64,000 nt of DNA from Pyropia yezoensis. Lineage: Eukaryota > Rhodophyta > Bangiophyceae > Bangiales > Bangiaceae. The notes under the pieces were generated by a model that saw nothing but the letters and a program-made list of their open reading frames with translations, was not told where the DNA came from and did no database searches. This document shows, piece by piece, positions 1,977-54,200 of the stretch. The stretch lies in assembly GCA_009829735.1 (NCBI GenBank), contig CM020618.1, forward strand, positions 15,048,568-15,112,567, read 5' to 3'. A program made the translations under genes and the position numbers. Position 1 is the stretch's first letter, and each line of letters begins with the position of its first letter.

Positions 1977-4565
1977 GGTGTGACCTGAGAGCATGAGCCC
2001 GCGTAGTGTCGCTTTGTTCTGTGTGGTTTCAGTCTGCATGCTGTTGTTCGTGGCTTGAGATTCTATTTGGGTTGTGACGCTCGCCATTGCCTCAGCTCCC
2101 GTGCGTACTGCTTTCCTTATGCGTGTGGTCTTCGTGTCCATGGGCTCGTCTTCCTTGTGCTCGTTGGTATCTGCTTTTCATGCGTGCGTATTGTGTTTCT
2201 GTGTGTATGGGAGTCTCTTCTGTGGGCGTACGCCGTCAATCCGCGCGCCCGCGCCATGTATCTTTCGTGTGCTTTGCGCACTGGTGGGATAGCGTTAGTA
2301 TAGCACTGCTGAGTGCTTTCCGCTCCTGCCCTTCCGGCGCCAGGAGAGCACTGCTTGCCGTGCGGTGGAGGGCAACGTGGGAGGTCATCAGCACCGACGT
2401 ACGAAAGCATACAGCCCTGCCTGGATGCATCCCGGAGCCGCATCCGCGTGCGCGTCAGCTGCGCAACGCGTGATCCCTCATCTTAAGATGGGCGGGCGTT
2501 ACGCGCTGGAAACGTTTTCCAAGGGGACGTTTCCAGAATTGTCATTGGTTCCGAAACAGGGTATACGGAGTCGCGAGACTGGCGCCCATCCAGGCCCCAT
2601 CCGCTGATGACCATCGAGCGCCCGTGACGCAACTCGAACGAGCAGCCGCTTTGATAGGGTATCAAGGGTGGCTCTAAATTTGAGCTTCGATGGGGAAAAA
2701 GGTATCGGTGACGATACAGGCATGCAACCCACAGGCCTTCAGGACCCAGCCGACTCTTCCTCCCAACTCAACCGTCGCTTGCGCTGATGATCTTCTTGGG
2801 TGTTGCCTGACAGTCGGCGCCGACTGCCGCGGCGCATGCTGTATCAATGGGAGGGGGGATCGAGTGAGCCCCCACCTCACAATTCATCGAAGGGATGAAC
2901 CGAATACACAGAAATCCATACTGTCATGGAACTTTCTAAGTTTCTATATTAAAATAACAATGTCACAGAGTACGCTGGTATCGAGTTAGTTGTGACGTTG
3001 TTGCCCCCACCATTGACGGAAGGGGAGACGAATTTCGCTCCCGGGCTCCGGCTGCGGCCAGACACTCTCCTTTATTCATTGTAAACCCTCCCGCCCCTCA
3101 ACATCAACCTCTCTTACTGCCTCCGCAGCTGCTCCACCCACACGGGAAGGGCCTTACCCCACATAGACCCGAGTCGAGAGAGTCGCCGCAAGGCGCACCA
3201 GGTGCACTTACCTCAAAGCCTTGTTCATGGGGGCGCCAAGGGCGCACCGGGCGACACTCAAAGCTGCGTGCATCCCTGGAAGCTCAGCGCAGGTGCATCG
3301 GGGAAACGGCGCAGGTCACGGTACCCGCGTGACGCGGCGGTGATTCGCCGTTTACGATCCCAGGTCTCCACATCCAGCACGGGAGGGAATGCATGGAGCA
3401 AAACACAGTACAGGCGTGGGTAGAGTCTTGATACCTACAGTTTCGTATGTACAAAGCGTTGAGACGCTTCAGACAGAGGCCAGTACACGGAGGGCAGCTG
3501 CAACAGAGGGAACGCCCCGACGTCGGCATTCAGCAATACGAACGAGGAGAGTGACATCTGCGTCAGAGCCGCGGCGAGGCAGCTCTCTCCCCAGCCCTCT
3601 GTAGCTGATGGAGAGGTTGAGTACCGATGTAGCGCCCTCAGTTTCTTGTTCGTGAACGACAACGCCCACGAATGATATTGGGCGCCATGGACCAGACAGT
3701 TGAGTGGACGGCCGGTCTGTGTTTCCGAGAGATCTGATCAGGCTCCCGGCTCAGTGCGGATACAATTCGCTCAGAACTCGACGAACGTGCTGTGTCTTGG
3801 ATTGATGTCAAAGAGGCGCGGCCATACAGCCGCCTCTGCCGCCGCAGAGGGCGGGTCGCCAACAGGATCGGCCACTGCTGCTGCCCGCCACCGCCGATCC
3901 CAACGGCTGTGTAGGTAGACCCCGCCCCGCGATCCTCGCTCTTGGCTGGTGGCGATTGTCTCGAGAGTGGCCACAGCTCGGCCAACCCGCTGCAGCGGTG
4001 CTTTGTGGCCTGCCCGTCCGCGCGGACAGGCCCGTTAGAGTGGGCGGGAAACCAGCTGCCGTTGAAATAGCGCAGGGCGGGCGGAGGAGGTGGCGGTGTC
4101 CTCCGCTGGCCGAGACAGCTTCCCCCAGGCGTCGCGAGCGAGCTCTGGGCCGACTGGGATGCAGGGCCGTTCTTGCGCCCGCCGCCCTGTCGAGGCGCGC
4201 CAGGGGGGTGTGGCGTTTATGGCGGTGGCGGGAGCACATCCCGCCATCACGTGCACCTCCCCGGTGTGCGCGGGTCGTGGCACAACGGCAGTGCCCGGCA
4301 GCCGTTCCGCGCCGCCGTGGGGCCTGCGTAAAAGGCCCCATCTCGGCGACGTTGGCGGTGCACGCGCGTGCCGCGGACACCGCACCTCGGCGGGCACCGC
4401 GCCTCAGCACGGCCGTCTTGCTCGCTGTCTGCCCTCCCGCCGACCTCTGGTTACCCCGCCTGTGCCCTTCCGTGCCCTTCTGTCTACGAGCAAGCCCTCT
4501 GTTGGCTTTTCCTCTCCGCTGCTGCCCCTCCTGCCGGGCCCCCCCCCTGCTCTGGCTGTGCAACT
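1977..4565. other. Intergenic stretch, no supported gene
   Basis: About 2.6 kb between the unrecognised gene and the Hint-domain gene. The first ~300 bp are T-rich on the plus strand and probably 3' UTR. ORFs of 60-250 codons occur in several frames near 3.6-4.6 kb but have no motifs and overlap each other on both strands, as expected for GC-rich DNA. Confidence 0.5.
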
Positions 4566-6824
4566 ATGCGGGCGCCGTGGAGACGACTGATCGTCGCCGC
4601 CGCCGCGGCGGCGGTGGCGACTGTTGCGTCTGTGTCCCATGGTAACGCAGTCAGCCTGATCGCCCCCCCCACGCCGCTGCCTACTCCCTTTGTCATTTTC
4701 ACGTCGGACACAGCGCAGTATTTGCGGCTGCCGCTACGCGGGGACGGCAACGACTCTGACGATGACGAGGCCCCGCGCGTGGCCGTGAATGGGCCGCGCG
4801 TCGTGGACGATGGGAGCGGCGACTTCGTTTCGCCGCTCGGTTGCGGCGCTGGTGGGGTGGGCACCCTGGGCTGCTCTTACCGGTCCATCACGATTGCGAC
4901 GCTGGGCGCCAACGGGAGTGTCATCACCAACGCCTCAGTCATTACGCACCAGCAGGGCGGGTTTGAGTTTGAGGAGCGAGGCGACTTCTCGTTTGGCCGC
5001 TCCATGGCCGTCATTAATGGTCAACTGGTGGTGAGCTCTGGGACGGACCAGTCAGACGACCCAGCGCCGGCGCTTATCACGCTACGGCTTGGCCTCGACA
5101 ACACCGTCACGTCTACTTCACGAATGGACTTGCGGCCGGTGCTGTGTGGCGGCAACACCGACGACGAAGACGACGACGACGACGACAGTGACGACTTGTC
5201 GTGTGCGCCAGCACGCGTGACGGACTTTTTCTTGCGAGCGGTTGGCGACGTGGATGGTGATGGTGTGGAAGATGCGCTCGTCTACATGTTCCGTTCCATC
5301 CACATCATCTTTCTGACCCCCGACAGCTCGGGTATCAAGGGCTTTCGCTCCACCTTCCTCCCTGAGCTGTTTTCTCTCTTTTACGGTCGTTTCAGCGCCT
5401 CAAACGTGGCCGTTCTGCCTGACATCAATCGTGACGGGGTGGCCGAGGTGGCGGTGCAGGGAGTGGCGACGCCCCAAGCGGCCGATGCTGATCCATCGTC
5501 GGGACCGCCACAAGTGGTGCCGACCCGCGTATGGGTGCTATTCCTGAACGCCTCTGGAGCGGTAAGCTCGCGGTCGCCGACGCCGTTTGGGTTTGGTGCT
5601 GGCGGCTTTTCGGGACGTCCGAGGACGCCTTTTAACCCAGATGACTTTGATGTGAGCGGCTCGGACGTGGCGTCTTTTGGTTCCATGTTGGTAGCCATGC
5701 CCCGCCTCACTGATGGGCGCTCACTTCTGCTCGTTGGCTCGGACCCCCGCGAGGCCATATGGGTGGTTAGCGTCGCCGGTAACGGCTACGCACTCGCTAC
5801 CGACACTATTCCTATTAACGAGGAGCTCTTCCCGGGTGCCGAGCAGGTGGTGGGCGTGGCACCGCTCGGTGAGGCGTCGTCGGATGACCAGGCGCAGCGG
5901 GTGCTAGTGACTACAGACGCCGGACTCGATTCACGACGGTGGCTGCTGGGTCTTAACGTGCTTGCTACACCAGACGCGGCGCGGCTTCCATCAGTGCCAG
6001 TGTCTCCCACGCCGACCCCCGAGACGCAGGAGCCGTCGGTTGTGGTCGTACCCGTTCTCCAACCTACCTCCGCGCCTGCGCCCACTCCGGCGCCCGCCCC
6101 TGCGCCTGCGCCCACACCTGCGCCTGCGCCCACACCTGCGCCTGCGCCTGGTCCCCCACCAACTTCATCCCCCAATGCAACGGAAGATGACAGTGACAGT
6201 GACGATGACGATGACGATCAAGGGCGGCAGGCCGGTGATCCTCTCGAGATGACCGAAGAGCCGTCTGACATGGAAGACTCGGAATGCTTCCCCGGGGACG
6301 CGACGGTTGAGCTTGACGATGGACGGCACATCCCTATGGCCCTCCTGGTGGTTGGCGACCGAGTACGGGTTTCGGCTACTCTGTTTTCTCCTGTCTTCCT
6401 CTTCACCCACAAGCTGGCGGCCGGCGCCCACAATTTTGTGCGTCTGTCCACCGCCTCGGGCTCGTCGCTGCGGATGACCCCCGGTCACTATGTGTACGCC
6501 AATGGCCGACTGACGGCAGCGGCAGCGGTTCGGGTGGGCGACCGCCTGGAGCGGCACGGACTGCGCCGCGGATGCGACGTTGTTACCGCCACAGACCGGG
6601 TGGTTGGGACGGGCCTGTACAACCCACAAACCATCCACGGTGACATCGTGGTCGACGGTGTTCGCGCGAGCACCTACACGACCGCGGTAGAGCCGGCCAT
6701 CGCGTCGGCCCTACTGTCCCCGCTTCGGGCGCTCTTCCACGCTACAGGCCGCAGCACAGTCCTACTTGATGGTGGGAGCGCGAGACTCGCAGCATTGCTG
6801 CCCGGTGGAGCGCAAGCGTACTGA
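4566..6824 (+). CDS. Secreted FG-GAP-like protein with C-terminal Hint (Hedgehog/intein-type) domain
   Basis: A single-exon frame of 752 aa from ATG 4566. The frame is open further upstream, but this ATG begins a classic signal peptide: Arg residues, an Ala/Val core, then a Ser-His-Gly-Asn-Ala exit, residues 1-31. Two Asp-rich calcium-binding-like motifs of FG-GAP/VCBS type (GDVDGDGVED near residue 226 and PDINRDGVAE near 285) suggest a beta-propeller-like ectodomain. An Asp-rich run lies near 195-215. A Pro/Ala/Thr linker (about 495-540) leads to an acidic segment and then a Hint domain starting at Cys574 (CFPGD). The domain has the Thr638-Pro-Gly-His641 motif, matching the nucleophile Cys and TxxH of Hedgehog Hog and intein domains. 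By family knowledge it would cleave itself at Cys574 through a thioester. The natural acceptor is unknown; no cholesterol-binding region is evident. Confidence 0.85.
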   Translation: MRAPWRRLIVAAAAAAVATVASVSHGNAVSLIAPPTPLPTPFVIFTSDTAQYLRLPLRGDGNDSDDDEAPRVAVNGPRVVDDGSGDFVSPLGCGAGGVGTLGCSYRSITIATLGANGSVITNASVITHQQGGFEFEERGDFSFGRSMAVINGQLVVSSGTDQSDDPAPALITLRLGLDNTVTSTSRMDLRPVLCGGNTDDEDDDDDDSDDLSCAPARVTDFFLRAVGDVDGDGVEDALVYMFRSIHIIFLTPDSSGIKGFRSTFLPELFSLFYGRFSASNVAVLPDINRDGVAEVAVQGVATPQAADADPSSGPPQVVPTRVWVLFLNASGAVSSRSPTPFGFGAGGFSGRPRTPFNPDDFDVSGSDVASFGSMLVAMPRLTDGRSLLLVGSDPREAIWVVSVAGNGYALATDTIPINEELFPGAEQVVGVAPLGEASSDDQAQRVLVTTDAGLDSRRWLLGLNVLATPDAARLPSVPVSPTPTPETQEPSVVVVPVLQPTSAPAPTPAPAPAPAPTPAPAPTPAPAPGPPPTSSPNATEDDSDSDDDDDDQGRQAGDPLEMTEEPSDMEDSECFPGDATVELDDGRHIPMALLVVGDRVRVSATLFSPVFLFTHKLAAGAHNFVRLSTASGSSLRMTPGHYVYANGRLTAAAAVRVGDRLERHGLRRGCDVVTATDRVVGTGLYNPQTIHGDIVVDGVRASTYTTAVEPAIASALLSPLRALFHATGRSTVLLDGGSARLAALLPGGAQAY

Positions 6825-23283: not shown

Positions 23284-26200
23284 ATGTGGCGGGGCCAGCC
23301 GCGGCGGGTGGAGTGGGCGGCCGGGGCGCGGCCTGCGGCACCTGCGGCGGCGATGGGCGCAGAGGCGCTTGCCGCGGCGGCGGCGGCGGCTCGCCGCCGC
23401 GCCCAGGCCGCGGCGGCCGACGCGGCGGTGCTCGAGGCGGCGGCGCGGGTGGCGGCGTCGGACGCGGCGGAAGAGGCGGCGGCGATGGCGGCGATGGTGG
23501 CGGCGGCACCGCGTCGAATGTCAGCCGCTGGCGCGGGCGCGGCGTCGGGGCACGCGTGGAACGCCTCGCCGCCCGCGATGGGCGGAACGGCCCGGTGGCG
23601 ATGCCAGCACTGCTCCTCCCGGGACATGTTTTGTCACCGCCCAGGGCCAGGCGGCGTGGGAACCCTGTGCAATGGTATGGTTAGTAGTAAAAGGGGCGTG
23701 TGGGGTGAGAGGGCGGTTGGGAGCTTGCGACGGTTTGTCTGTGTGGGAGGGGTGGGCGGCGGGGGCCTGGGGATGTAGGTGTGTGTGTGTGTGGACGGAA
23801 CTTCATCGGGAGGAACTGACGGCCGTGTGTTTGCTCGCCGGTGTTTTCTACTGTCCACCCCCCTGTGCTGGCGGGTTTTTTGGCGCTGGGCCCACAGCGT
23901 GTGGGATCAAGTGGCGGGACCAGCAAGTTCGGGAGAACCGGGCCGCCTTTGCAGCCTCCGCCGACGACGCCTCGGCGGCGGCGTATGCGGCTGACGATGG
24001 TGCGTATGGTGGTCACTCCGACGACGGCGGCGCCTATGGGTTTGCCGGCGGTGGGGGAGGGCGGCGCGTCGCGGTGGCGGCGGCGGCGGCGGGGCGCGCA
24101 GCCGGCCCGCCCCCTGTGCCCAGCCTGGCGCGGCGTCGCCCGCGGGGGCGAGCATCGATGCGGGGGGGCACTGGGCCGTGGCGGTGCCAGCGGTGCCTCA
24201 AATGTGTCACTCCTTGTCACCGGCCGGGCCCGGGGGGGAAGGGCACGCTGTGCAACGGTACGTGCGCTGGCGGGGCAGTGCGTGTGGTGTGGAGACGGTG
24301 GAGGGGGGGCCGCTGTGGGCGGAGAATTGTGGTGGGCGTGGATTTTTGTTGTTGGTTTTCTTGGTGCAGCGGCAACCGGGCGGCTGGCCGTTTGGACTGG
24401 CAGTGTTGTTGGGGTTGAGGATGGGGAGGTGGACGTCTCTTTTCTCTTCTCTTTCATTGTGGAGTGGCGTGCTGTGCCCGGGTGGGTCATTCCTCATGAT
24501 GGGGCATACGCTGACATACATGTTTTTCTCTTGTCGTTTTCCTGGTGTCGTGGTCGTCCTCCTCGCACCTACGCGACGACGGTACGTCTGTGGGGGATTA
24601 CGAATGTGATTGGTGGGTGTGCGGCGGTCGGCGACTCAGCGTGTGGGCTGAGGTGGCGGGACGAACAGAAGCGGGGGGAGAACGCGGCGGCGCTGCGTGG
24701 CGAAAGCCCGCTTGGGAGGAATGCTGCGGCTGTGTCCGCCGCTCCGTCCTCTTCCGCGCCCGTAGAGGCGGCTGCCAATGGCGCGGAGCAGGGGGTTGCC
24801 GGCGGTGTGGTGCAGGCGGTTGCCGACGGTACGGAGCAAGCAGTTGCCGACAGCGCGGAGCAGGCGGTTGCCGACGGTACGGACCAGGCGGCTGCCGCGT
24901 TGTCTGCTGCCACTGCAGAGGCGCAGGCGGCCGCTGCCCAGGTGGTGGCCGCGGCAGACTCTCCGGCCCCGTCGGGCAGCCCTACCGTCGATGTGGCCGC
25001 TGGGGTGCCTTCGATAAGGCCGTCTGCGGACGCATTCACAGACGGCGCGACGGGGCCCGCTCCCCCCGGTAGCGCCTCCGCCTCCCCCTCTACGCGGCCA
25101 CAGGCGGCTGGCACACCGGTCCGCAACCCCTCTCCGGTAGCAGACACTGCATCCGAGCGCTCGTTCGAGCAGGAAGGGGCGGACCCCTGGTGGTGCCCTC
25201 AGTGCGCCACGCCCGATTTGCCGTGCCCCCGTGTGGAGCGAGGCGGAAAGGCGCGGTGTGAAGGTACGTTTGCGGTGGGCGGAGGGTGAGGCCTGGGGTG
25301 GGGAAAGGGATGGGTTTGGGGCTGCGGAGGGGCAGGTCTCCTGATTGCTCTAGTGCCAGCCTATGGAGTGGTTGCCCCAGTGCACGCTGCCCTGCCCTGT
25401 TTCTTGGTGCGCTAAGCATGACACGTGCTGACGGTCCTTTTGCCCGCCACCACTTTGCCGTCATTGCGTCTGCCTACCCGTGTTGCCTGTTTGTCTCTGG
25501 ATGGGGCTGGCCCTCTGGGTGCGTTTGGGACTGCAGTGTGTGGGCTGACGTGGACCGATGAGCAGGTGCGGGAGCAGCTAGGCGGCACGTCTGATGGAGG
25601 CACGCCAATGGAGATGGACGCTGCGGCGGCTGATGGTGCGGCGCAGGAGGATGTGGAGCAGGGCACGTCAGGCGCGTGGCAGTGCCATCATTGCGGCACG
25701 TTTGACGGCTTTTGTCATCGCCCGGGGCCAGGCGGCGTGGGAACTCTGTGCAACAGTGCGTCTGCCGGCGGATGTTCAGCGAGGAGAAAGTGCGGAGGGG
25801 TCCGGAAGAGGGTTGTAGAGTGGCTTGCGCAAGTGGGGTCAGAGCGCTCGTTTTGTATGTCAGACGTGTCAGCCGGGGCGACTGGATACCACTAGAGTGC
25901 CCCCCTTTCCCCGATTGGCGCTGACGGGCTTTATCAATTGCTGTTGTCTTGTCTGATTCCTCTGCGTTTGTCTGTCGCCGGTGGTGATCGTTGGTGCCCG
26001 GAATGCGGCGAATCGGTGCGGCGGGGTCACAGGCTGTGGAATCAGGTGGAGGGACCAGCAAGCACGTGAGCAGCAGCAGCAAGCAGCAGCATCGGTGCCT
26101 GATGCTTCGCAAGAGGCAGCCGCTGCTGCTGCCGTTGCTGCGCAGGGGCCATGGGAATGTCATCGGTGCGGCGTGACCTACACTCCCTGCAAGCGTAACG

Positions 26201-29096
26201 GGCCAAGTGGAAAGAAGACGCTTTGCAACGGTACGACTGTGGGGGTGAGGGGAGGGGCATGAGGGGCGGGGGCTGGAAAAAAAAATCGATCTTGTTGGCT
26301 GAGGGTGAGAGAGCTCTGTCTTGTTGTATCCGCGTGTCGCAGCCGGGCGGCGGGTCTCTTGTGTATTATCCCTTGTGACGGGCCTTCTTTGTAACGGGCA
26401 CCTCTTCTAACGTGGCTCACCTTCGTGCCTGCTGTGCACCGCCCTTTGGATGTGCGTTTGCTCTGGGCTGGATTGTATGGATGGTTGTTGTGTGGATGCA
26501 TTGGGATGGTTAATGCTGCAGCCTGTGGACTCAAGTGGAAGGACCAGCTGAGGCGGGAGGAGCGCGCGGCTGCTCTGGCTGCAGAGTCTGCCCTGGATAC
26601 GGATGTCGCTGTGGCTGCTGCTGCTGTGCAAAAGCGGCTGGATGAATCGTTGGCAGCGGCCGCTTCGCGACCCGCGGTGGACCGGGCAGTCTCAGGGGCG
26701 TGGCAATGCGAGCACTGCGGCTCCCAGGACATGTTTTGCCACCGCCCCGGCCCAAGTGGAATGGGCACCCTGTGCAATGGTATGGTTGGTTGAGGCCGTG
26801 AGGGGGGAGGGAGGGGGGAGCAAACTGTGGGATGCTTCTTGGGGTCGGGGGCTACGTGAGTGGCGGAGCGGCTGTCTCTTGTTGTTCTTCTTGCTGGTAG
26901 CAACCAGGATGCGACCGATGTGGTTAATCTTGCTGGCGGCGGGACGGCCACTTACGGACTTGTTTGTGAACATTTCTTCCCTGGACGCTTGATTTGCGTC
27001 TCTGTGACGTTTATACTGTCCAATGGGTTGGACGCGGTGAACGCTGGCCGGGCTTGCAGCGTGTGGACTGAAGTGGAGGGACGAACAGATGCAGCAGCAG
27101 CTGGCCGTTGTGTCGAACACAGACGCCGTGCACGAGTCTTCAGTCGTCGCTGCCGATGTGGCTCCCGCGCGGCCAGTAGCCGCCGCTCCTGACCCTTTCC
27201 TCACTGCCCCGCGGAAGGCATCATCCGAGCCGTGGGAGTGCCAGCGGTGCACCGTCACCTCCACCACCTGCCGCCGTTCGGGGCCAGGCGGAAGGAGCAC
27301 GCTCTGCAATGGTATGTCTTTAAGAGGGGGGTGCGGTGGGGGCGGAGCAGGGGGGGTGCTGATTGCGGCTGCTTTTCTCTTTGGTGGCGGCCGGGTGGCC
27401 TACAGGTTGCCCGTCGCAGAGGGACTTGCGACTGACGGATTCCCCTCCCCTTGTTGTTTTCTGCTCTTATGTTGTGTTGTGCTTGGATGATTGGGCGGGC
27501 GTGTGGTCGATTGGGTGGTTACGGGGCACTTGGCGCCGCAGCTTGTGGGCTGAGGTGGAAGGATCAGCTGAAGCGGGAGAAGAAGGCGGCTGCACTGGCT
27601 GCAGAGTCTGCGCTGGATACAGATGTCGCTGTGGCGGCTGCCGCTGTGCAGCAGCAGCTCGATGAGGTGTCGGCCGCCGCCGCCACTGTCCAGGTTGCCC
27701 CAGAGCGGGAGGCGGGGGAACCATGGCAGTGCCAGCATTGCGCCACCCGCAATTCGTTTTGCCACCGTCCCGGGCCAAACGGGATGGGCACGCTTTGCAA
27801 TGGTATGTTGTAGCGGGGGACGCCGCGGAGGCGGGTGCTGTTTTTGTGGAGACCCGCTGCTGTTTTTTTTTGAATGGCAGCCTGTCAACTGCTCTTGGCT
27901 TGCCACTCTAGTCGCGCGTAGACGCTGACGGACTGCTTGCTACACATGTTTCTCCTGTGCTTGTCCTTGGCACCTCTCTGTTTGTGGTGCGGCGTGATTC
28001 GTGGACGGCCGCCGGGGTGCCGCAGCTTGTGGGCTCAAGTGGAGGGACGAACAGATGCGGGCGCAGCTGGCCGCCGTGGGGGATGCAGACGCTGCTGTGG
28101 AGACAGTGACCTCTGCCGCTGCCGCTGTGGCGCAGGAGATGGCACGCCCCCCGTGGCGATGTGAGCATTGTGCCACTCACGAAACGGCATGCCGCCGTGC
28201 GGGGCCGAGCGGGAGCGAGTCGCTTTGCAATGGTGCGTCTGTCTTGGACGGCAAGGATGGAGGGTGGTGTGCGATTCGCTGGGGGAAGGGTGTGGTGACA
28301 AGGGGGCCGTTTTGGTCAGTCGCTTTCTATAGGGCAGCTACCCCGGGGCCTCGGCCCCCGGCGGTTATCCCTCGCGGCGGAGCATGTACTGACTTACTTT
28401 GGGCCCCACCATCGTTCCTCTTCCCCGTTGGTGAATCGTGTGTGTGGGTTGGGTGGGTGTGGAACATCGCGAATTGCAGAGTGTGGGCTGAGGTGGAGGG
28501 ACGAACTGTACCGGGGCGAAGTTGCTGTCCCACCGGCTGCCGACGTGTCGCGTGAAGCTGCTGCCAGTGCGGCTGCGGCAGCGAGTGCCGCCGGTCCGCG
28601 CCGGGTAATGGAGGTTCCTATGCCGCAGCCGCGTCAGCGGAAGCCAAAACCGCCTTGGAACTGCCAGCGGTGTTCGACGAGCGTTACCCCCTGCCATCGG
28701 CCTGGGCCGGGCGGGAAGGCGACACTTTGCAACGGTACGTCTGCTGAAGGAGGGGGGACGGAGGAGGTTCTGGAGAAAAGGAGAGGGTACTCTTTTCGCG
28801 CTTTTGCAGGGTCTGTGCGGGAGGCTCTCCCCCTGTGTAGGATTCCTACCCCATTGGGCGTGCACTTACCGATAACCCTTGGCTGTGCTTTCCTTCATGA
28901 CTGCGCTCGCTGACCATGGCTGGGGCACTCTTAATTGTGGATGGGCGGTGTGTCGGGCGGCGGGGCTCCAGCTTGTGGGCTGAAGTGGAGGGACCAGCAA
29001 AAGCGGCAGGAGCGGGCTGCTTCTTCTGCGGCTACGCTGGCTTGCGAGCAGGGTGCCGCTGCTGCGTCGGCCACTACTCCACCACCAGATGTGTGA
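23284..29096 (+). CDS. Ten-finger GATA-type zinc finger protein built from tandemly duplicated exons
   Basis: The exons are 23284-23674, 23898-24257, 24640-25263, 25537-25755, 26033-26230, 26522-26779, 27060-27311, 27542-27802, 28026-28232, 28480-28734 and 28972-29096, giving 1049 aa with TGA at 29094-29096. Every intron (223-382 bp) is GT-AG and phase 1, and falls at the same codon. The exon 5' to the intron ends Leu-Cys-Asn plus one base; the next exon begins with two bases and then Cys-Gly-(Ile/Leu)-x-Trp. Joining them rebuilds ten fingers of form C-x2-C-x18-C-x2-C (finger 3 is x17), most closing as LCNACGLRW-like. The codon split by the intron varies (Ala, Val, Ser, Glu) but always gives a sense codon. 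Ala-rich linkers separate the fingers. Each finger has an extra Cys, and the usual GATA-finger Trp after it is His, Arg, Lys or Pro. The basic tail of DNA-binding GATA fingers is replaced by an Arg-Asp-Gln/Glu motif. DNA, RNA or protein binding is undetermined. The first exon is the least certain. Confidence 0.85.
24778..24900 (+). repeat. Short in-frame repeat in exon 3 of the GATA-finger gene
   Basis: About four copies of a ~30-bp unit encoding Glu-Gln-Ala-Val-Ala-Asp-Gly-Thr-like decapeptides in the long linker before finger 3. This helps explain why exon 3 is 624 bp when most other internal exons are 198-261 bp. Confidence 0.75.
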
Positions 29097-35414: not shown

Positions 35415-36110
35415 GGGCCCCCGTTGACCACAGCGTCCCCAAGCGGACCCACACCCGCGGCGACGACCAGAGGGGGAGCACCAGCAACACCAACAACGGC
35501 GCCAGGTAGACCACTGCCACCACCCGCGACGCGAGAAGGACGGGAAGGGGGGTGGCCAGTGCGCCCGCCAGGAGGACCCCCACCGAGCGGACCAACACCC
35601 GCGGCGACGACCTTGGGAAGAACGCAGGCACCACCAGCGCTGCCGCCAGGCCCACCGCCACCACCAACCGCGACGGGAGAAGGACGGGGCCGGGAGTGGC
35701 CAGCGCGCCCGCCGGGAGCACCCCCACCAAGCGGACCAACACCCGCGGCAACGACCTTGGGGAGAACGCCAGCACCACCAGCGCTGCCGCCAGGCCCACC
35801 GCCACCACCAACCGCGACGGGAGAAGGACGGGGCGGTGAGTGGCCAGCGCGCCCGCCGGGAGCACCCCCACCAAGCGGACCCACACCCGCGGCAACGACC
35901 TTGGGGAGAACGCCGGCACCACCAGCGCTGCCGCCAGGCCCACCGCCACCACCAACCGCGACGGGAGAAGGACGGGGCGGGGGGGGGGCACCGCGCCCCC
36001 CGGGAGCACCCCCACCGAGCGGACCCACACCCGCGGGGAGGACGAGGAGGGGAGCACCAGCACCACCGACGTCGCCGCCAGGCCGGCCGCCACCGCTGTC
36101 CTCGAGTGCA
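35415..36110. repeat. 144-bp minisatellite, about 4.8 copies
   Basis: Units begin at about 35408, 35552, 35696, 35840 and 35984, a constant 144-bp step. The central two are nearly identical and the outer ones diverged. Because 144 is a multiple of three, a 48-residue Gly/Pro/Ala repeat is open on both strands, which produces long artificial ORFs. Confidence 0.9.
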
Positions 36111-36790
36111 GAGCGCCTGGGAGCGACGGGGGCAGCGGCACCGCCGTGGACGTCAGGCATGTCGATGGCGTGTCGACCCCACCGCGCGTCACGGCTGGAG
36201 GGGACGGGCGGTGAGCAATGCGAGGGTGGGGAAGAGAAGAGCGCACGTACATGAGGGCATGAGGGTGGGCCCCGGGTGGTCGAAGTTGCCGCGCGCGCCA
36301 AAACGCGGCGCGCTGGACGCACGTCTGGGTTCCCAGTAGTTCTGCCAAAGGTCATATTTGGATAAGTAGCCCTCCAAAAACGTCTATGGCTTCTGCACTT
36401 TTCTTCGCGTCTCGAAAGTAAGCTGAAGTGTAAGATTCTGCTTACACTGGAGAATGTTTGTCAGATTTCATGCACTTAGGAAAAAAACAACTGCAAACGA
36501 CAGATTTCGATGTGGCGCAGCTGCTGATGCCAGAAACTCGAAGTGCAAAAAGCCAAATAGAATGAGGTTTCTATCGTCATGAGCCACATGTGTTCAAAAA
36601 GTCGACACTATATTATATTTTGTGTTATTTGTCACGGTCGTCGAGGTCATGAGGTGAAAGTGTTATCCCAAGGATTCTATAGGCTGGTGCCCGGCGACCT
36701 TGCTGCGCTGGGGGCCATCCGTTACCAGGTGCGGCCAGGATAGGTCGAGAGCTCGGCACGAGGTCCCCACGTTAACAGAGAGGTCAGATT

Positions 36791-38158: not shown

Positions 38159-38627
38159 TGTGGCAAAAACCACCCGCACACGCGACACCCAAGTTGGGGC
38201 GGTGCGCAAGGGCTGCCTTCCGTGTCGGGGGAACCGGAAGAAGTGCAAGTCGCACACACTCTATCCCTGTTGTGGGGCAATCCCCCCACTGACAAACAAG
38301 GAGATGGTGTATGGGCCAACAGTTTCTTGGTCGGGACGGGGAAGCGAGGCCAAGCCCCGCTGTCCCTCCCCTTATCCCCCCAGGGTCCCCTCAGAATCTC
38401 GCCACTCAAAATCTCCCAACCCAGCACCTGCCCATCGGGCGACACGAAAATTGAATACGATAAATGCAGAAAACCCTCAAATCCACGTTGGATTTACTAC
38501 TAAGCTAACTATCCCAAACTTAGGGAATATGGACCCAACTGCAGGGGGAGGAACGGATCAGGCTAGTGGCCTGCCGCCCCTTGCATGACAAGTGTTGCCC
38601 CCCTATCTGGGGGTCAATACTGCCACA
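38159..38627 (-). repeat. Inverted copy of the family-A LTR
   Basis: 469 bp that is the reverse complement of the LTR at 38914-39382, with the same TGTGGCA...TGCCACA ends and only scattered differences. It is separated from that LTR by 286 bp. No 5-bp target duplication is evident at its edges, so it may be a remnant of a rearranged or nested element and not a clean solo LTR. Confidence 0.9.
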
Positions 38628-38913
38628 CTCCCCTCTCCTCAGTTCCGACCGACCCGGTCGGCCCTGCGAGGGGGCGTAAAAACGCACATCGCGGCGTTGG
38701 GGGCGCGACTTGCTGTCCCCCCGGTTCGTCACGTGGACGTGGCGGCGGTCACGTTGACCGCCGCTCTCTTCAAGCTTGCCCAATTGGCAGCTTGCTCTTA
38801 TCGGTACTCACCTCACCACCACCAACACATCCTCTTGACCTTACCCTGGGCCGCCCCACGCTGGGGAGGCCACCCATCTACCCGCGATCCGAGCCCCCCT
38901 CAACGCGAGGTGG

Positions 38914-39382
38914 TGTGGCAGTATTGACCCTCAGGTAGGGGGGCAACACTTGCCATGCAAGGGGCGGCAGGCCACTAGCCTGATCCGTTCCTCCCCCTGC
39001 AGTTGGGTCCATATTCCCTAAGTTTGGGATAGTTAGCTTAGTAGTAAATCCAACGTGGATTTGAGGGTTTTCTGCATTTATCGTATTCAATTTTCGTGTC
39101 GCCCGATGGGCAGGTGCTGGGTTGGGAGATTTTGAGTGGCGAGATTCTGAGGGGACCCTGGGGGGATAAGGGGAGGGACAGCGGGGCTTGGCCTCGCTTC
39201 CCCGTCCCGACCAAGAAACTGTTGGCCCATACACCATCTCCTTGTTTGTCAGTGGGGGGATTGCCCCACAACAGGGATAGAGTGTGTGCGACTTGCACTT
39301 CTTCCGGTTCCCCCGACACGGGAGGCAGCCCTTGCGCACCGCCCCAACTTGGGTCTCCCGTGTGCGAGTGGTTTTTGCCACA
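38914..39382 (+). repeat. 5' LTR of family-A retrotransposon
   Basis: 469 bp with inverted ends TGTGGCA / TGCCACA, directly followed by a tRNA-primer site. The family assignment comes from the gag-pol that follows. Confidence 0.88.
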
Positions 39383-42422: not shown

Positions 42423-45400
42423 CGTCGGCGACCGGAACCACGCGCGATGCGTTGCATCTTGGAATTTCGACACTGTAACTGTTTGCAATTGCTGCAATCC
42501 CCTGCAGTACAAAATGGTGCACCAAGTACGACTGAACGGCCTTCGTACTGCAAAGCATGCATTTCATTGAACTGCCGTGTTGTTCGGTGCATGTCAGTGC
42601 GATGCAAAATTCTCAGATTGCCTCGAAGCCACGCAGCCGTACGTCTTGCGGATGACTGGAGAAAGGCAGGCTGCGGCCTCGGGCTCTACCAAACTGAACT
42701 CCTCCACAACGAGCACTGAGCGGCCCCTTTGTTCAAAATACACTCCCAACTTTGTTGAACCCGTCCGATAATTTGCTCCAGCCCTCCCAGTTCTCGTCGT
42801 CGGGGCGATTCGTGCTTGAGCGACGTCACGGCACCGCGTCCAAAGCTCAATACGCAGGGGCTACCTGGAGGCACCCCGTCCAGGCTACGCAGTTCCCCGC
42901 GCCCGCGCTCACGCAGAGCTGATTCACGACAGAGGTTCTCTCCGTCAGCTCTGATTCTCTTCTCTTGCCATCTGAGCAGTGGATCTTGCCACAAGATCGC
43001 ACTTGACGCACGTTGAGAATAACCGATCCCCCCTCAGAGCTCTCATGGGACCGGGTCCGACCGATTCTGCGACCAAGTCAGAGCATAATCGACTTGGTAC
43101 CACCAACAGACAACAACGGCTCACTCCGTGACCTGACAACGATTTGTGATTTCCTTTCACCGCCCCGTCTCCAGGTACAACGAGCGGTTCCCACCACACA
43201 TTCCTGAAATCGCTCTCCGTCACTGTTCAATCACGGCTTAACAGGACATCAACGCTGCCTTTCACCGCGAGGTACCATTTCTGTCGAGACCAAGTCACAG
43301 CTGAACACCTCTCTAGACGGAAAAAGAGCAACGGGAAGAAGACGCGTATCATGCAGTGTCACGAGAGCTACATGTCCAGTCGAGAGCTTCCATATCATAT
43401 ACCGCTTTTCTCTGCGAACACATGCAAAGCGAACCAATACACGACACTGATCAAGGCAAGGAAAGAATAACAAGAGAACACGATGCGAATACAAGGCAAT
43501 ACAGACGTTATCACGCGTACAGAGGCACTGTCCTTCAGGAGTACAGGAACCACTCAGTTCTACTGCACAAACGCATTGATTATAAACCGCCGCTGCTCGA
43601 GATCATCGGCATCTATCGGATGCGTGGACGGGAGGTCGTCGAGGCTATGCCGGCTCAACCAATCTTCCCAGTCATGCTCCACACAGAGCACCTTGGTGAT
43701 GACGCCCAAGTCGATGGCCTCAAGCTCAACAGCAGCAGAGCACGGCTGAAGTGCCCAGCGCAACCGCGTGCACCCATACGCGGCAAACGGACAGTCAGGG
43801 CGGGGTGTCGCAACCTTGGCTCGTTCAACGACCACCTTTCGACACATAGAACCAGCTAGACTTGCCACTAAGACTCGGACCCGACCGTACTGCTCCGTCC
43901 CGTCAGACCTCCGATAGCGCACCCAATCAAACCAAGGACGACCTTTAAGATTATCGGCCGCCCACACGGTTTACCTACGCCCATCAGCCTTGCGATCGGC
44001 CGCATCGGACAGCCAAGCGCCCGACTGCAGGACGACACTGGTAGATGCATCACACTGCAAGGCATCGCAGAGATTGGGCAAGTTCAGGTCCTCTGCAAGA
44101 GCACCAGCGACAAATGGTCTGCCTCGGACCCTGACACGTCGGCGGCGGTTTCCCTCGCGCCTCCCTTCCTTCTGCTCCACTTCGAAGGGGGCGATAAGCG
44201 TAGAGATCTGCTCTGCCAGCACCATCTGCAACGCTGCATGTTGCCGCGTCTTATTTGTGAGTTGGAAAGCCCGCTTGACGAACTTGTGCAGCGCCTCGTT
44301 CATCCCAGTGTTGCCATCATACACATTGCCCCGCAGAAGGAACTCATCCTTGAGATGAGATACAGTCCAATGCACCTTGGTGGTGTTCGTCTCACCAAAA
44401 AGCCCGTGAAAGTCATTCTCAATCCACTCGGATAACCGCTCGCACAAGCTCTTAGCACGCCGCCATGTCATCGGGCTTGGGTTGAAGATGTCCCGCAGAA
44501 GCGCGGCCAGCTCACAGAGGCTCCAGGTCAAAGTCCCATGGTACAGTCGGCCCGGTGCATTGCGACCGAAGAATCCAGCCACCGCGAACGGCAGAAAGTG
44601 CACGGCATCGCGGAGGCCCTTCCCCTTGAGAGTTGCTTGCAGAACTCCAGGCTTAATGAAGTAGCCTGGTGAGACAGAAGGGACATGATGAGTGCGGCAA
44701 GCATATAGAAATATCTTGTTTGCGTGCCGAACAGTTTCCGTGTCCGTCCCATGAAGAAGAAGGCCTTGGCGCGCAGTCGCCTTGGAGTAATTGTAGACGC
44801 CCTTGGTCAGCTCGCGACACACACCAAGATCAAGCACCTGTCAAGCAAACGTTACACCAGTGTCCAGGTAGCACACACAACAAAACACCAACCGAAACGT
44901 CAACAACACAGACAATGACGCACGATCACACACACTCATACTGAGACGTACAAACAATCACAAAAAGACATAAAATCCAATGCATTGCGTGACACATAAC
45001 TAACACACTCGAGTGTAGAACGTACATGTAAACGATCGAAGCCAAAGATCTGGTATAGCAGAAGGCATCCGGACCCGAGGCCTGCCCAGGCCGCCAGAGC
45101 TGGCACGATGCAGTGAATACTGTATTTCATCTCCGTCGCATCGATGACAACACCTGTGCCATACGTTCCCCGCATCCTCCCTCCCTCGAGTTGCTTGCCC
45201 ACCATCTTCAGCACGTTGCGCTTCTTCGGCGGCACGCCAGAACGTCTACCGCAGGAGCTTGCTGGCGCCACACAGGTTGTACAACCAAATGCCGTTCCTT
45301 GGCGCTTCAGGCACACAATGTCTCGCTCTTCAGGCTGGTCACTCACATACAGTACGACGCGAGGCGATACAGAACCTTGCGTGCCATCCATCATTGTCAC

Positions 45401-47346
45401 AGTCACGCCAAAGTGGCTCGCCTGCATCAGCTCCTTGAAAGCCAGGTTGAGCGTGTGTTGAAGCACCTGTGCGCGAGCAGTGGCGGCGTTGGCGGCGGAC
45501 CTTTTTTGAAAGTCAGCCCACACCTGCGGAACGTACGCAACAGTGACCCAGACGGGCACACGGGACAACAGGTTCATGATTCTCAATCGTATAGGATATG
45601 CAAAGACACCTGAGGACAGCAACACATACGATATGAAGCGGACATACAGGCAGTGTCTACCACACTGATCTACAATGCACATAGGGACACAACGGCACAC
45701 AAGAACATACAAAGCGAGAACACCCACCGCAAGCCACGAGCTCGCCAACGCGAACCCTGAAGTGTCTTTGCGACTGAGATGCAACGGGCTTCGCTTACCT
45801 CCTGAGCTTGTGACAACGGTACTGTCGGTGTAAAGGGCCAAAGCCAGCATGAGCGCCTTGACCCCGAGCACTCGGATGACGTCAGCCCTCTGCGCCTCGT
45901 AAGCCTTTCCGTCGAAACAATCACGCATGACGTCGTCGTTCTGCGTCGGAGAGAGTTGTGGACCATCTTTCTTGTGAACGACAGGAGTACATGTCGGGCA
46001 CCCGAGCTGAACTCCGCCAGTCTCGTCCTCGTCGTTGCCTGAATCACATTGCGTGGCACAGTCGTAGCGCACACCCTCGCGACAGTTGCAACCTTCGCCA
46101 CCACGCTCCCACCGAATTGCGGGCGCCGATGCGATGGCCTTCATGATCTCAAGCATGCCACTGCGGAATATGATGCGCTGAGGGCCTAGAACAGTTGGCG
46201 CGTCGGCCTCCATCCAACCCAGGAGCTGCAACAGTCCCTTTTTCTCCTTCTGAACAGCCTCTTTGATGGCAGTCTTGGACTTGAAGACGTCCTTGATTGG
46301 TCTGGTAGTTGAACCGGTCCCGTCCTCGACCCGACGACAGAGGCGATAAAGCCTGGCGACCTCGCCCTTGGACACACCTGCGCCGCCGGAGGTGCAAGCA
46401 TGAAAGAAGAACTGTCTTGTTGCCGGAGAGCGAAATGCAGAGACATGCGTGCGCGACGATGCGAACGATGCAGGGTGATACACCGGGTTGCTCACACATG
46501 GCACTGCATTGTAGTGGTCCCATACCTGCCCACACAACGAGCTGCCGAGGTCGCCCGCTCCAATGTCCACCTCCCTAGGGTGATGACGGGCGGCGAGAGA
46601 GTACAGCTCATACAGAGCACGATTCTCCATATCGTCAAGAGGGTCGGCGGAGCCCGCTGTCCCAAGCGCTCTTGTCGTGCTACACTCGCCCTCCTCCACA
46701 GGGACTCCGTCGACTCTGGTTCGTACATCGTCCACTGACACGTCATTGCAGCCACCACTTGCAACGCCGGCCGCACTCCGTCCTGACTCACTGCTCTCCC
46801 CGTCACTTGTCCCGACCGAGCTTGTTTCATCATCCGATCCCCTGTCCTCGTCTGCGCTGCCACACGCGTCGCCTCCTCCAGCATCGGCGCAGCTACCATG
46901 ACGGACGACTCCGTCGACAGCCACAGCCTCACCGCTACCGTCTACGTCGCTACCACCGGTGTCGCCAGTCGCCAGCAGCACCCCAACTTGTGCCGGCTCC
47001 GAAATCGTATGTCGCCGGCGTAGATGACGACCAAGAAGAATGGCATGGACGAACTCGTCCGGACAACCGTCCACAGGGCAACCGATCATCGCACGAGGTA
47101 GGCGATCACAACACCGTGCAACTCTTTGTAAGGCACACTGCAACGCGCTGCAACGTGACAGCTGCACGGGTCACGGGCGAGCAGACAATGGAGAAGATGA
47201 TGAACGAGGACGCGCACGACGCCAGCCTTGCGGACGCGTGCCCCACCGGACTCGGCACGCTGCGCAACGGCACAGTCGCCGAGGTCAATGTCAGCGGCGA
47301 GGCGTACCGCCGTGCAATTGCGTGATTCCGGATGCCAATGTGAGGC
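42423..47346. mobile_element. Plavaka/CACTA-like DNA transposon (ends approximate)
   Basis: The interval lies between the break in the family-A retrotransposon and the LTR of the chromovirus, and contains a complete Plavaka-like transposase gene. A CACTGTAACTG at 42471 is a plausible left terminus for a CACTA-type element, but I could not find its inverted partner before 47346, so the ends are inferred. Short TGCAA/TTGCA motifs cluster near both edges (42450-42495 and 47120-47160), as in subterminal repeats of CACTA elements. 42.72-43.97 kb holds no supported gene. Confidence 0.55.
43971..47089 (-). CDS. Plavaka-like (CACTA superfamily) transposase, three exons
   Basis: The exons are 47089-45799, 45609-45026 and 44837-43971, with GT-AG introns (GTAAGC and GTACGT donors) and matching phases. 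Removing the introns gives an open 913-codon frame. A C2H2-like finger sits at residues 4-27 (C-x4-C-x12-H-x4-H). An acidic Ser/Asp/Gly region follows to about residue 170. Then come features of Plavaka transposases: a Tyr-x-Asp-Ser-Thr segment before intron 1, a PIRLRIMNLL-containing segment at the start of exon 2, a Tyr-x-x-Asp-x-Pro-Glu motif followed by Cys-x2-Cys, and the Phe-Asp-Arg-Leu-His-Val-Leu-Asp-Leu-Gly motif spanning exons 2 and 3. No stop or frameshift is seen in the exons, so it could be active. Confidence 0.8.
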
Positions 47347-51224: not shown

Positions 51225-54200
51225 TTACAGTAGGCGTCGTCGCCTCATGTAAGGCATGAGTAGTTGGCGGGGTATATTCGCCGCCTGTTCCCAGGTGGGT
51301 GAGTCGTATCCGACCCACATAACCTTGACGTACCAGGGTCCTGGCAGGTCCGGGTCGGTGTGTCCGACCACGCTCTCTACTTGGTATGGAATCCCATCCG
51401 GTCCCACCGGGTCATCTGACCGGTGGGTTGTAAGAGCTTCATGTAGCAACCCAGCCGGTACCGGCTGAGGCTGTTCCGGCATCGGAGCCGGTGTGACGTC
51501 ATTCATGCTGATGCGTTGAATCTCCGTATCGGAGTGTAAGATAACAGAGTGGTCATCTCTGTGGAGGATCTGGTACGGTCCCTTGACCGGTTGCATAAGC
51601 TTGTTCCCTCGGAACTTCTGGTGTCTGATATAGACCCAGTCACCTGTTACCAGGGTTGCGTTGCGCACCCGTAGTCGGGCGTCGAAGTTCTTCTTGTATC
51701 GAAGTTTTGTTCTGTCAAGGGCACCCTTGAGCTTAGGAATCATCCACGATAGCTTGGCCAACCAAGCTAGGTGGATGCGTTCGGCGGGTCGGCCCTTCGG
51801 TGTATCATACCGAGTGCACCTGCCGGGTGGCAGCGTCAGGTTACCGACGCCTAGTGGCATGACCCACTCCAGCGGAGCAATGTTTGTGCTCCGATGTGGC
51901 CTGGCATTGTATGCCAGGGTGAGTACGGACAGAAGCCTGTCCCAAGTGTTCGTGTGCTCGGCCACGTAGCACTGTAGCATCTTTACGATGGTGCGGTTGA
52001 ACCGCTCCACCTGCCCGTTGGACTGCGGGTGGTAGTCGGATGCCCGACGTGGTTCGATACCGAACATGCCCAGGACCTTAGTGCAGAATGCCGACGTAAG
52101 GTTTGCTCCGTTATCGGAGAGGAGTTGCTTCATGACTCCGTATGCACTGATCCAGTGGTCAACCACTGCGTTCATGATCGTGTATGCCGTATCATTCGGG
52201 ATGGCTGCCGCTCTTGACAGCTTAGTGAAGCGGTCAGACATGACCAGGATGTACCTGTTCCCTTCTTCCGTTATCGGAAGTGGCCCGAGTATGTCGATAG
52301 CGACTTGCTCGTTGGGCCCATCAGGTGGGAGTAGCTTCATGGCAGACGCCCGCCTATGTAGACTCATGCGGTTACGTGCACAGGGGTGGCATCCCCTTAC
52401 GTGGTCGACCACGTCGACGGCCATTGCTGGCCAGTAGAAGAACCTTCGCATTGCTGCGAACATACGTGAACCCCCCGGGTGTCCGGCTGTAGGGTTCTCA
52501 TGTTCTCGTTTCATGACGGCTTGCCGTAAGGACACGGGAACCACGACTTGATGTCGTCCATCGGCGGGTGCCCGCCGGTATATGAGTCCGTCTTCGTTCT
52601 CGGAGAAGATGCCGGCCGTACCGGCCAGGAGGTTAGCACGATGACGTATACAGTCATCGTCGTTGGCCTGTGCCTCGCGGAAGTCCGCGAGGGTCAATGG
52701 GCCCGCAAGGTGTGCCATGGTATGGTCAGCCATACCCTGGGTAGCATTACCCACCATGCACACCGGTACCACCGGGATGTCCTCGTCCACCGGGCGGGTA
52801 TCCCCGCTCGGGGTGTCGAGTCTAGACAACGCGTCTCCGAGGTGGTGGGTTTACCCAGCCTTATACACCGTGCGGTAGTCGTGCTCGGCCATCTTCAGCC
52901 TCCATCGGGCTAGCCTCCCATGGCTATCGGAATCCTTGTCACCGAGGTTGAGGAGCCATCGTAGGGGTTCCTGGTCGGACCTCACGATGAACCTGGAGCC
53001 CTCCAGGTATGGACGGAGCAGTTGCACTGCCCATATAACTCCGAGGCATTCACGCTCGGTGGCACTATAGTTCCGTTCAGCCGGGTTGAGTGTCCGGCTG
53101 AAGTACCCTACCGGACGTAGGTCCGGGATAACGTTGTCGGTACCTATCAGCGTCTCTCCCTGTAACAGGGTGCATCCCACTTGTGTATCACACGCATCGA
53201 CATCGATGACGAAGGTACCCCGTCTATGCGGTAACGCAAGGACGGGTGGGGCTAGTAGGGCTCGCTTCAGCGACTCGAATGCCTCCTCTTCGCTAGGCGA
53301 AGGGGGTTGGAGTACCTTGGGCAAGGTACTGCTCGTAAGAACCGTTAACGGTTTAGCTATCCGAGCGAAGTCCTTGACGAATCGTCGGTATACATTGCAC
53401 ATTCCCAGGAAGCTCTTGAGCTGCGTCTGGGTGTTAGGGAACCGGGCATCCCGGAGTGCCCGGGTATTGGCTTCGAGTACCCCTAGTTTACCAGGGGTTA
53501 TCTGGTGGCTCAGATATTCGACCGTCTGTTGGAAGAAGGCGCACTTCTTCAGACGCAGGGTTACCCCGGCGTTCCTCAAGAGGGTGAGTACCTCGTCAAC
53601 ATGTTGTACATGGTCATCCATGTTACGCGAGAAGACGATGACGTCATCGAGGTACACTAGGCAGTTACGCCACTTCACCCCCGACAGTATGATGTCGATA
53701 GCCCGCTGGAATGTAGCGGGGGCGTTGGACAATCCGAAGGGCATCCTTAGGAACTCGTACACTCCACTGTGACAGACGAATGCCGTCTTGGGGATATCCT
53801 CGTCCGCCACCGGGGTCTGCCAGTATCCGGCATTGCAGTCGATGGTGGTAAACACCGTAGCCTCCCCCAGGGAGTCGATGCATTCATCCATCCTTGGTAA
53901 AGGGTATGAGTCCTTCTTGGTAACCAAGTTGAGGCGTCGATAATCGATGCAAAACCGAGGGGTTTGATCCTTCTTCGGCACAATAACGACTGGGGCACCC
54001 CATTCCGACATCGAAGGTCGGATCACCTTAGCTTCACTCATCCTCTTCACTTCTCCATCAACGATCTCTCGTTGCATGGGTCCCGCTCGGTGCGGTTGTG
54101 AGCGGGCGGGTCGTGCGCCTGGTACCAGGTCTATACGATGTTGAGTTGCCCCAATGGTCCCCAAGGCCCCGCCTGTCCACATAACGTCATGCTTTCTTAG

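What the first reader, a model, noticed from the sequence alone, without database searches (positions are those of the whole stretch)
23284..29096. Ten GATA-type fingers, each split by an intron at the same codon, built by tandem exon duplication
Eleven exons encode ten C-x2-C-x17/18-C-x2-C fingers. All ten introns are phase 1 and fall between Leu-Cys-Asn and the closing Cys-Gly, so no exon carries a whole finger and every internal exon is a symmetric phase 1-1 module that can be duplicated or skipped without breaking the frame. Ordinary GATA proteins have one or two fingers. The layout means exon skipping would still leave a correct hybrid finger, allowing combinatorial isoforms with different finger numbers and pairings. 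I know of no described GATA family with this arrangement.
Basis: partly seen in the sequence, partly recalled or inferred. Interest (0 to 1): 0.92.

Follow-up and report, generated by a model that had tools for sequence, protein, structure and literature searches.

The report
Ten-finger split GATA gene, red alga
A gene of a nori-type red seaweed encodes ten copies of a zinc-binding finger that most proteins carry once or twice, each cut by an intron at the same spot so that exons can be copied or skipped without breaking the protein; the gene is real and conserved, but its fingers have changed a usually conserved position and use of exon skipping is not yet shown.

Summary
Eleven exons (23284-29096, +) join through ten GT-AG, phase 1 introns into a 1049-aa frame with ten C-x2-C-x17/18-C-x2-C fingers; Pfam GATA matches at 5e-60 in nine stretches. 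A Pyropia vietnamensis protein aligns in the same order, though its model lacks F2 and F3, and twelve read-through ORFs from other contigs stop matching at the same exon edges. Corrections: (1) four GATA genes with one finger seen, and a three-finger paralogue, have the same split site in this genome, so the intron probably came first; (2) fingers alternate between two types and the clearest duplication is a two-exon block; (3) all ten fingers have Cys-His/Arg/Lys/Pro where most have x-Trp, so GATA binding cannot be assumed; (4) GATA proteins with four or five fingers exist. One gene model skips exon 5, leaving an intact hybrid finger, but it is a prediction. New variant of a known kind.

The parts
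23284..23674 (+). exon 1: Ala-rich N-terminus and N-half of finger 1 (type A)
   Evidence: Met-Trp start region aligned with P0001, which has four more residues before it
23898..24257 (+). exon 2: C-half of F1, N-half of F2 (type B)
   Evidence: read-through ORFs P0020, P0016
24640..25263 (+). exon 3: C-half of F2, long spacer, N-half of divergent F3 (x17, RCE)
   Evidence: F3 conserved in P0016
24766..24897 (+). 24-bp tandem repeat inside exon 3; 24766 is also the exon 3 start used by gene model P0011
25537..25755 (+). exon 4: C-half of F3, N-half of F4 (type A)
   Evidence: P0012, P0083, P0112, P0135
26033..26230 (+). exon 5: C-half of F4, N-half of F5 (type B); skipped in gene model P0011
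26522..26779 (+). exon 6: C-half of F5, N-half of F6 (type A); duplicate of exon 8
27060..27311 (+). exon 7: C-half of F6, N-half of F7 (type B); probable partner of exon 9
27542..27802 (+). exon 8: C-half of F7, N-half of F8 (type A)
28026..28232 (+). exon 9: C-half of F8, N-half of F9 (of neither type clearly)
28480..28734 (+). exon 10: C-half of F9, N-half of F10 (type B, closest to F2)
28972..29096 (+). exon 11: C-half of F10, tail, stop
23675..28971 (+). span of the ten introns between these exons, 223-382 bp each, GT-AG, phase 1; similarity to each other about at chance level

Best explanation
This is one gene of Bangiales red algae (the genome is probably Neopyropia yezoensis) that encodes a protein with ten GATA-type zinc fingers. 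Its ancestor was, I infer, a GATA gene whose finger was already cut by a phase 1 intron between Leu-Cys-Asn and the last Cys; copying the stretch between two such introns adds a whole finger without breaking the frame, and repeated copying, at least partly in two-exon blocks of finger types A and B, built the array. Shown: structure, coding status, conservation of order and of exon edges, the shared intron site. Inferred: all exons are normally included and the product is a multivalent nucleic-acid or chromatin binding regulator in which the ten fingers act together. Every finger has Cys plus His, Arg, Lys or Pro where most GATA fingers have x-Trp, so it probably does not read WGATAR in the ordinary way.
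For: Clean 11-exon model; Pfam GATA 5.3e-60; orthologue P0001 aligned in order over F1 and F4-F10, each of E5-E10 best matching the same-numbered P. vietnamensis unit; exon edges conserved in 12 of 12 read-through proteins from other contigs that were compared, each with at least one edge inside its ORF; same intron site in a three-finger paralogue L029 and in four genes with one finger seen in the fetched 2.5-3.5 kb: L030, L031, L036, L037; E6/E8 spacer score 138 against at most 57 for the other pairs; A/B split best of 35 partitions, 3.75 against 0.98 for the next; third-position bias in four of five exon pairs; loop Cys in 10 of 10 window fingers against 0 of 284 fingers of other fetched proteins, Trp 0 of 10 against 271 of 284.
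Against: No transcript seen. The P. vietnamensis model has only eight whole fingers: F2 and F3 are missing; P0016 has the N-halves of both, so a prediction gap is likely but not proven. P0011 joins E2-E3 differently and skips E5. E7/E9 show no third-position bias, and by protein score E7 is slightly closer to E10 (178) than to E9 (172). Independent gain of an intron at one favoured site in several GATA genes was not excluded by a tree. Net charge of the 20 residues after the last Cys runs from -3 to +3, against +3 in four plant factors, so a basic tail is not general. No functional data.
Confidence: 0.6

Rival explanations
1. Cassette array: exons are skipped in a regulated way, giving isoforms with different finger numbers and hybrid fingers.
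For: Junction codons of all 55 forward joins hold no stop; gene model P0011 skips E5 and leaves a hybrid finger; if it is of the 2013 set, cDNA and EST hints were used. Precedent: Drosophila serpent makes one- or two-finger isoforms from a duplicated exon with mutually exclusive splicing (passages of PMC8844375).
Against: P0011 is a prediction, the 2013 assembly was fragmented (contig N50 1,669 bp), and P0011 also uses an unusual E3 start; P0001 includes E4-E11 without skipping; symmetric exons are expected from duplication alone and do not show skipping.
Confidence: 0.22
2. The fingers are protein-binding modules rather than DNA-binding ones, like the FOG-binding role of animal N-fingers (recalled); the array is a scaffold.
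For: The loop x-Trp that most GATA fingers keep is changed in all ten; several post-finger tails are not basic.
Against: In the nine fingers other than F3, the Arg after the changed pair and the LCN core are invariant; overall profile match; nearest solved chain by sequence is a plant GATA factor, GATA18, 4.6e-07.
Confidence: 0.3
3. Decaying array: only part of the exons is used.
For: F3 is divergent; both outside models leave out part of E2-E3.
Against: F3 is conserved in P0016; no stops; third-position bias in four of five pairs; order conserved between species.
Confidence: 0.07

Closest known systems
GATA zinc finger domain proteins (Pfam PF00320)
   Same: C-x2-C-x17/18-C-x2-C, LCN-x-C core in nine of ten, strong profile match
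   Different: Ten fingers; loop Cys-His/Arg/Lys/Pro instead of x-Trp; every finger intron-split
Multi-finger plant GATA proteins (rice OsGATA24 with four; Alopecurus P0013 with five)
   Same: More than two GATA fingers in one protein (passages of PMC4401516, non-overlapping pattern)
   Different: Fewer fingers, Trp in the loops of P0013; their exon structure was not examined here
Nematode ELT-2/ELT-3/END GATA genes with an intron in the finger
   Same: Intron inside the finger next to the third Cys (passages of PMC7712238 and PMC6945043)
   Different: In C. elegans ELT-2 the intron lies 1 bp after the third-Cys codon, one codon upstream of the site here
Drosophila serpent
   Same: Finger exon thought to be duplicated; isoforms with different finger number (passages of PMC8844375)
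   Different: Whole fingers per exon, two at most; isoforms shown there, not here

Membership tests
GATA-type zinc finger (PF00320) | CX2CX17-20CX2C | tested here: met
   10 of 10 fingers
GATA-type zinc finger (PF00320) | Profile score over the curated cut-off | tested here: met
   199.1 bits against 26.8 for the whole protein; 9 stretches
GATA-type zinc finger (PF00320) | LCNAC around the second Cys pair | tested here: met
   LCNAC in 7 of 10, LCNxC in 9 of 10
WGATAR-binding GATA transcription factor | Loop x-Trp-Arg (Trp conserved) | tested here: not met
   Trp 0 of 10; 271 of 284 in other fetched fingers
WGATAR-binding GATA transcription factor | Basic region after the finger | tested here: inconclusive
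   net charge of 20 residues -3 to +3
WGATAR-binding GATA transcription factor | Binding to WGATAR DNA | not testable with these tools
   none; so it is filed under the finger fold, not as a GATA-binding factor
Duplicated-exon cassette array (serpent-like) | Tandemly duplicated, frame-neutral exons | tested here: met
Duplicated-exon cassette array (serpent-like) | Alternative inclusion in transcripts | tested here: inconclusive
   one predicted model with E5 skipped

The most novel reading that the evidence does not exclude
A splice-programmable zinc-finger array: regulated skipping of split-finger exons yields many isoforms whose fingers are hybrids of any N-half and any later C-half, giving one red algal gene a repertoire of multi-finger proteins with altered, non-GATA specificity.
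Probability: 0.18. Interest if true: 0.85.

Novelty: new variant of a known kind. Interest (0 to 1): 0.6.

Why it matters
Ten is more GATA fingers than in any of the 193 proteins held from the three protein searches by a non-overlapping pattern (one search listed 120 of its 533 hits, and searches scored only about 8,000 candidates each); the next is the orthologue P0001 with eight in its model. It gives a concrete case in which an intron inside a domain turned the domain into a unit that can be multiplied by exon duplication, and it makes finger-number isoforms directly testable by RNA sequencing. It also marks a red algal finger subclass with a Cys-His/Arg loop signature, shared by two of three fingers of the paralogue.

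Tried and rejected
The first protein search (577 to 1836 aa candidates by the length rule) returned ten proteins, one of them red algal, so two shorter queries were used. Intron-to-intron alignment to date duplications gave nothing: best off-diagonal score 31 of 45 pairs against a shuffled 99th percentile of 29 and maximum 35 of 500. In one search the row for F3 was out of register (its loop is one residue shorter) and its identities are not used. A FastTree of finger N-halves pairs window and P. vietnamensis F5, F6, F7, F8, F9 and F10 with each other or with relatives of the same number, but supports are low, the F8 rows of P0132 and P0134 fall beside window F1, and P. vietnamensis F4 and F1 do not pair with the window's; used only as illustration. 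The paralogue's finger 1 was missed by the 17-18 loop pattern; read by eye it has a 20-residue loop, and its first exon's start was not settled. Of the other fetched places, L032 and L033 and L038 and L039 gave no split finger by the patterns used; L034 and L035 hold unsplit fingers. Two further rows that end at profile positions 22 and 23 were not fetched. The lax family search also rings in three bacterial control genomes, so its weak rows count only where the sequence was read. Literature searches for red algal, many-fingered or split GATA genes (listings; passages of eleven papers) showed me no description of this gene or of a split-finger array; the library is partial and no paper was read whole. 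Structure prediction was off, so the place of the extra Cys relative to zinc is unknown. An earlier count said Trp is replaced by Cys; the better reading is that the residue before Trp became Cys and Trp became His, Arg, Lys or Pro.

Full report
What is there. On the + strand, exons 23284-23674, 23898-24257, 24640-25263, 25537-25755, 26033-26230, 26522-26779, 27060-27311, 27542-27802, 28026-28232, 28480-28734 and 28972-29096 join to a 1049-aa frame ending in a stop at 29096. All ten introns (223-382 bp) are GT-AG and phase 1; each splits the codon between the Asn after the third Cys (Glu in finger 3) and the fourth Cys. The nine internal exons are all multiples of three. Nine fingers have an 18-residue loop, F3 has 17.

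Is it real coding sequence? Pfam GATA matches the joined protein at 5.3e-60 with nine separate stretches. The nearest protein, P0001 of Pyropia vietnamensis (MMPV_009975, 920 aa), matches residues 500-1035 at 4.4e-280, 74% identity, and aligns in order: E1 103 of 128 aligned residues identical, E2 47 of 84, E3 58 of 105, and E4-E11 aligned over their lengths or all but a residue. Its model lacks F2 and F3; it has eight whole fingers. Between duplicate exons E6 and E8, differences fall 14, 17 and 36 at codon positions 1, 2 and 3 over 85 codons; over the last 30 codons, E2/E10 (5, 7, 19), E4/E6 (7, 3, 17) and E4/E8 (8, 6, 17) show the same bias, E7/E9 (14, 8, 14) does not.

Exon edges in relatives. 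Thirteen proteins from unspliced ORFs were compared with the exons; one of them, P0133, bears no source, which marks the window's own. In the other twelve, wherever a splice edge lies inside the ORF, similarity starts at CG and ends at LCN (or LCE), followed by Gly or Ser, which fit a GT donor after G or A: for example P0012 E5 1-65 of 65, P0016 E3 1-207 of 207, P0131 E6 1-85 of 85, P0132 and P0134 E8 1-86 of 86, P0135 E4 1-72 of 72. P0020, P0032, P0135 and P0027 are nearly identical to the window (118/119, 129/130, 70/72, 56/59); the others are more distant (58-84% for their best exons). P0016 and P0131 share a contig length of 3959, P0134 and P0137 of 2508, so I infer that they lie on the same contigs. 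P0016 holds the N-halves of both F2 and F3, with F3 conserved.

Where the split came from. A family search of the own genome (61 rows at E up to 10) lists six of the ten window half-fingers, two of the paralogue's, and four other rows that end at profile position 24. All four were fetched and read: L030, L031, L036, L037. Each has a donor right after LCN-G and an acceptor 200-421 bp on, before CGLR or CGIR, and a canonical Trp (QWR); one finger was seen in each fetched stretch of 2.5-3.5 kb. Of the 30 rows at E up to 0.001, 27 run past the site (one with a TAG inside the match); eight of them were read and are unsplit. So the same phase 1 site occurs in other GATA genes, and the simplest account is that the split is older than the array; repeated gain at one site was not excluded. 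A paralogue at G000:C2:28003500-28010500 (L029) has three split fingers and introns of 344, 442 and 318 bp at the same site. These joins, too, are read from the DNA alone.

How the array grew. N-halves fall into type A (F1, F4, F6, F8) and type B (F2, F5, F7, F10); of the 35 ways to part these eight fingers four and four, this one separates best, 3.75 against 0.98 for the next. F3 and F9 were left out of this test as divergent. E6 and E8 share their spacer (score 138, other pairs at most 57), and E7 and E9 are each other's best matches in DNA (71); by protein score E7 is closest to E10 (178), then E9 (172). I read this as a two-exon block duplication, older than the split from P. vietnamensis, since E5-E10 each match the same-numbered unit there best. 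Introns keep no similarity above about chance.

The fingers are unusual. At loop positions 7-8 the window has CH, CR, CK or, in F3, CP; in 284 pattern matches with 18-residue loops in 165 other held proteins, position 7 is never Cys and position 8 is Trp in 271 (these proteins were found because they resemble the query, so this is not a random sample). That these positions touch DNA or the core in GATA proteins is recalled, not tested. In the paralogue, F2 and F3 have the same signature and F1 has Ala-Arg.

Does skipping happen? P0011 (EukProt, contig_28141_g6913) is identical, 488 of 488, to a join of the window's E2 (from an internal ATG at 24158), E3 from 24766, E4, E6, E7 and part of E8. 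E4-E6 gives LCN-T-CGLKW, a whole hybrid finger. The 2013 P. yezoensis models were made by AUGUSTUS with cDNA and EST hints; whether reads cover this join I could not see. The junction codons of all 55 forward joins are free of stops. The mechanism therefore works on paper; its use is open.

Comparison. Multi-finger GATA proteins are known (OsGATA24 with four; P0013 with five by pattern). The finger intron of C. elegans ELT-2 lies one codon upstream of the site here, and in the ancestral animal layout each finger sits whole in its exon (passages of PMC2383905). Serpent shows that a duplicated finger exon can give isoforms of different finger number. None of these combines ten fingers with a split in each. 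Organism: 107.5 Mb in 11 contigs and the identity of P0011 point to Neopyropia yezoensis; this is inference.

Odds. On rechecking, the E7/E9 codon result and the closeness of E7 to E10 were added as evidence against, and the confidence in the best explanation was lowered from 0.62 to 0.60.

Noticed in passing
window 38159-38628 and 38913-39382: Inverted repeat with 470-nt arms, 99% complementary; a 755-nt unit of it recurs at 90-95% identity in 41 other listed places of the genome (only the best candidates were scored), so it is probably a repeat element with an extra inverted arm here.
   Followed up: partly
window 4368-6824 (+): Long ORF with a Hint module, E 1.2e-23.
   Followed up: no
window 35439-36158: Tandem repeat of 144-bp period, about four copies, inside a long ORF on the - strand with a weak DUF7869 match under its cut-off.
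   Followed up: no
window 44936-47167 (-) and 52851-55391 (-): Plavaka transposase match (2.8e-08) and a reverse transcriptase with RNase H (8.5e-34): mobile elements further along the window.
   Followed up: no
P0031 (389 aa, source ena): An unnamed protein with four divergent GATA-like fingers without Trp in the loop and a precomputed PF13920 match (a RING-type domain, recalled): another unusual finger array.
   Followed up: no
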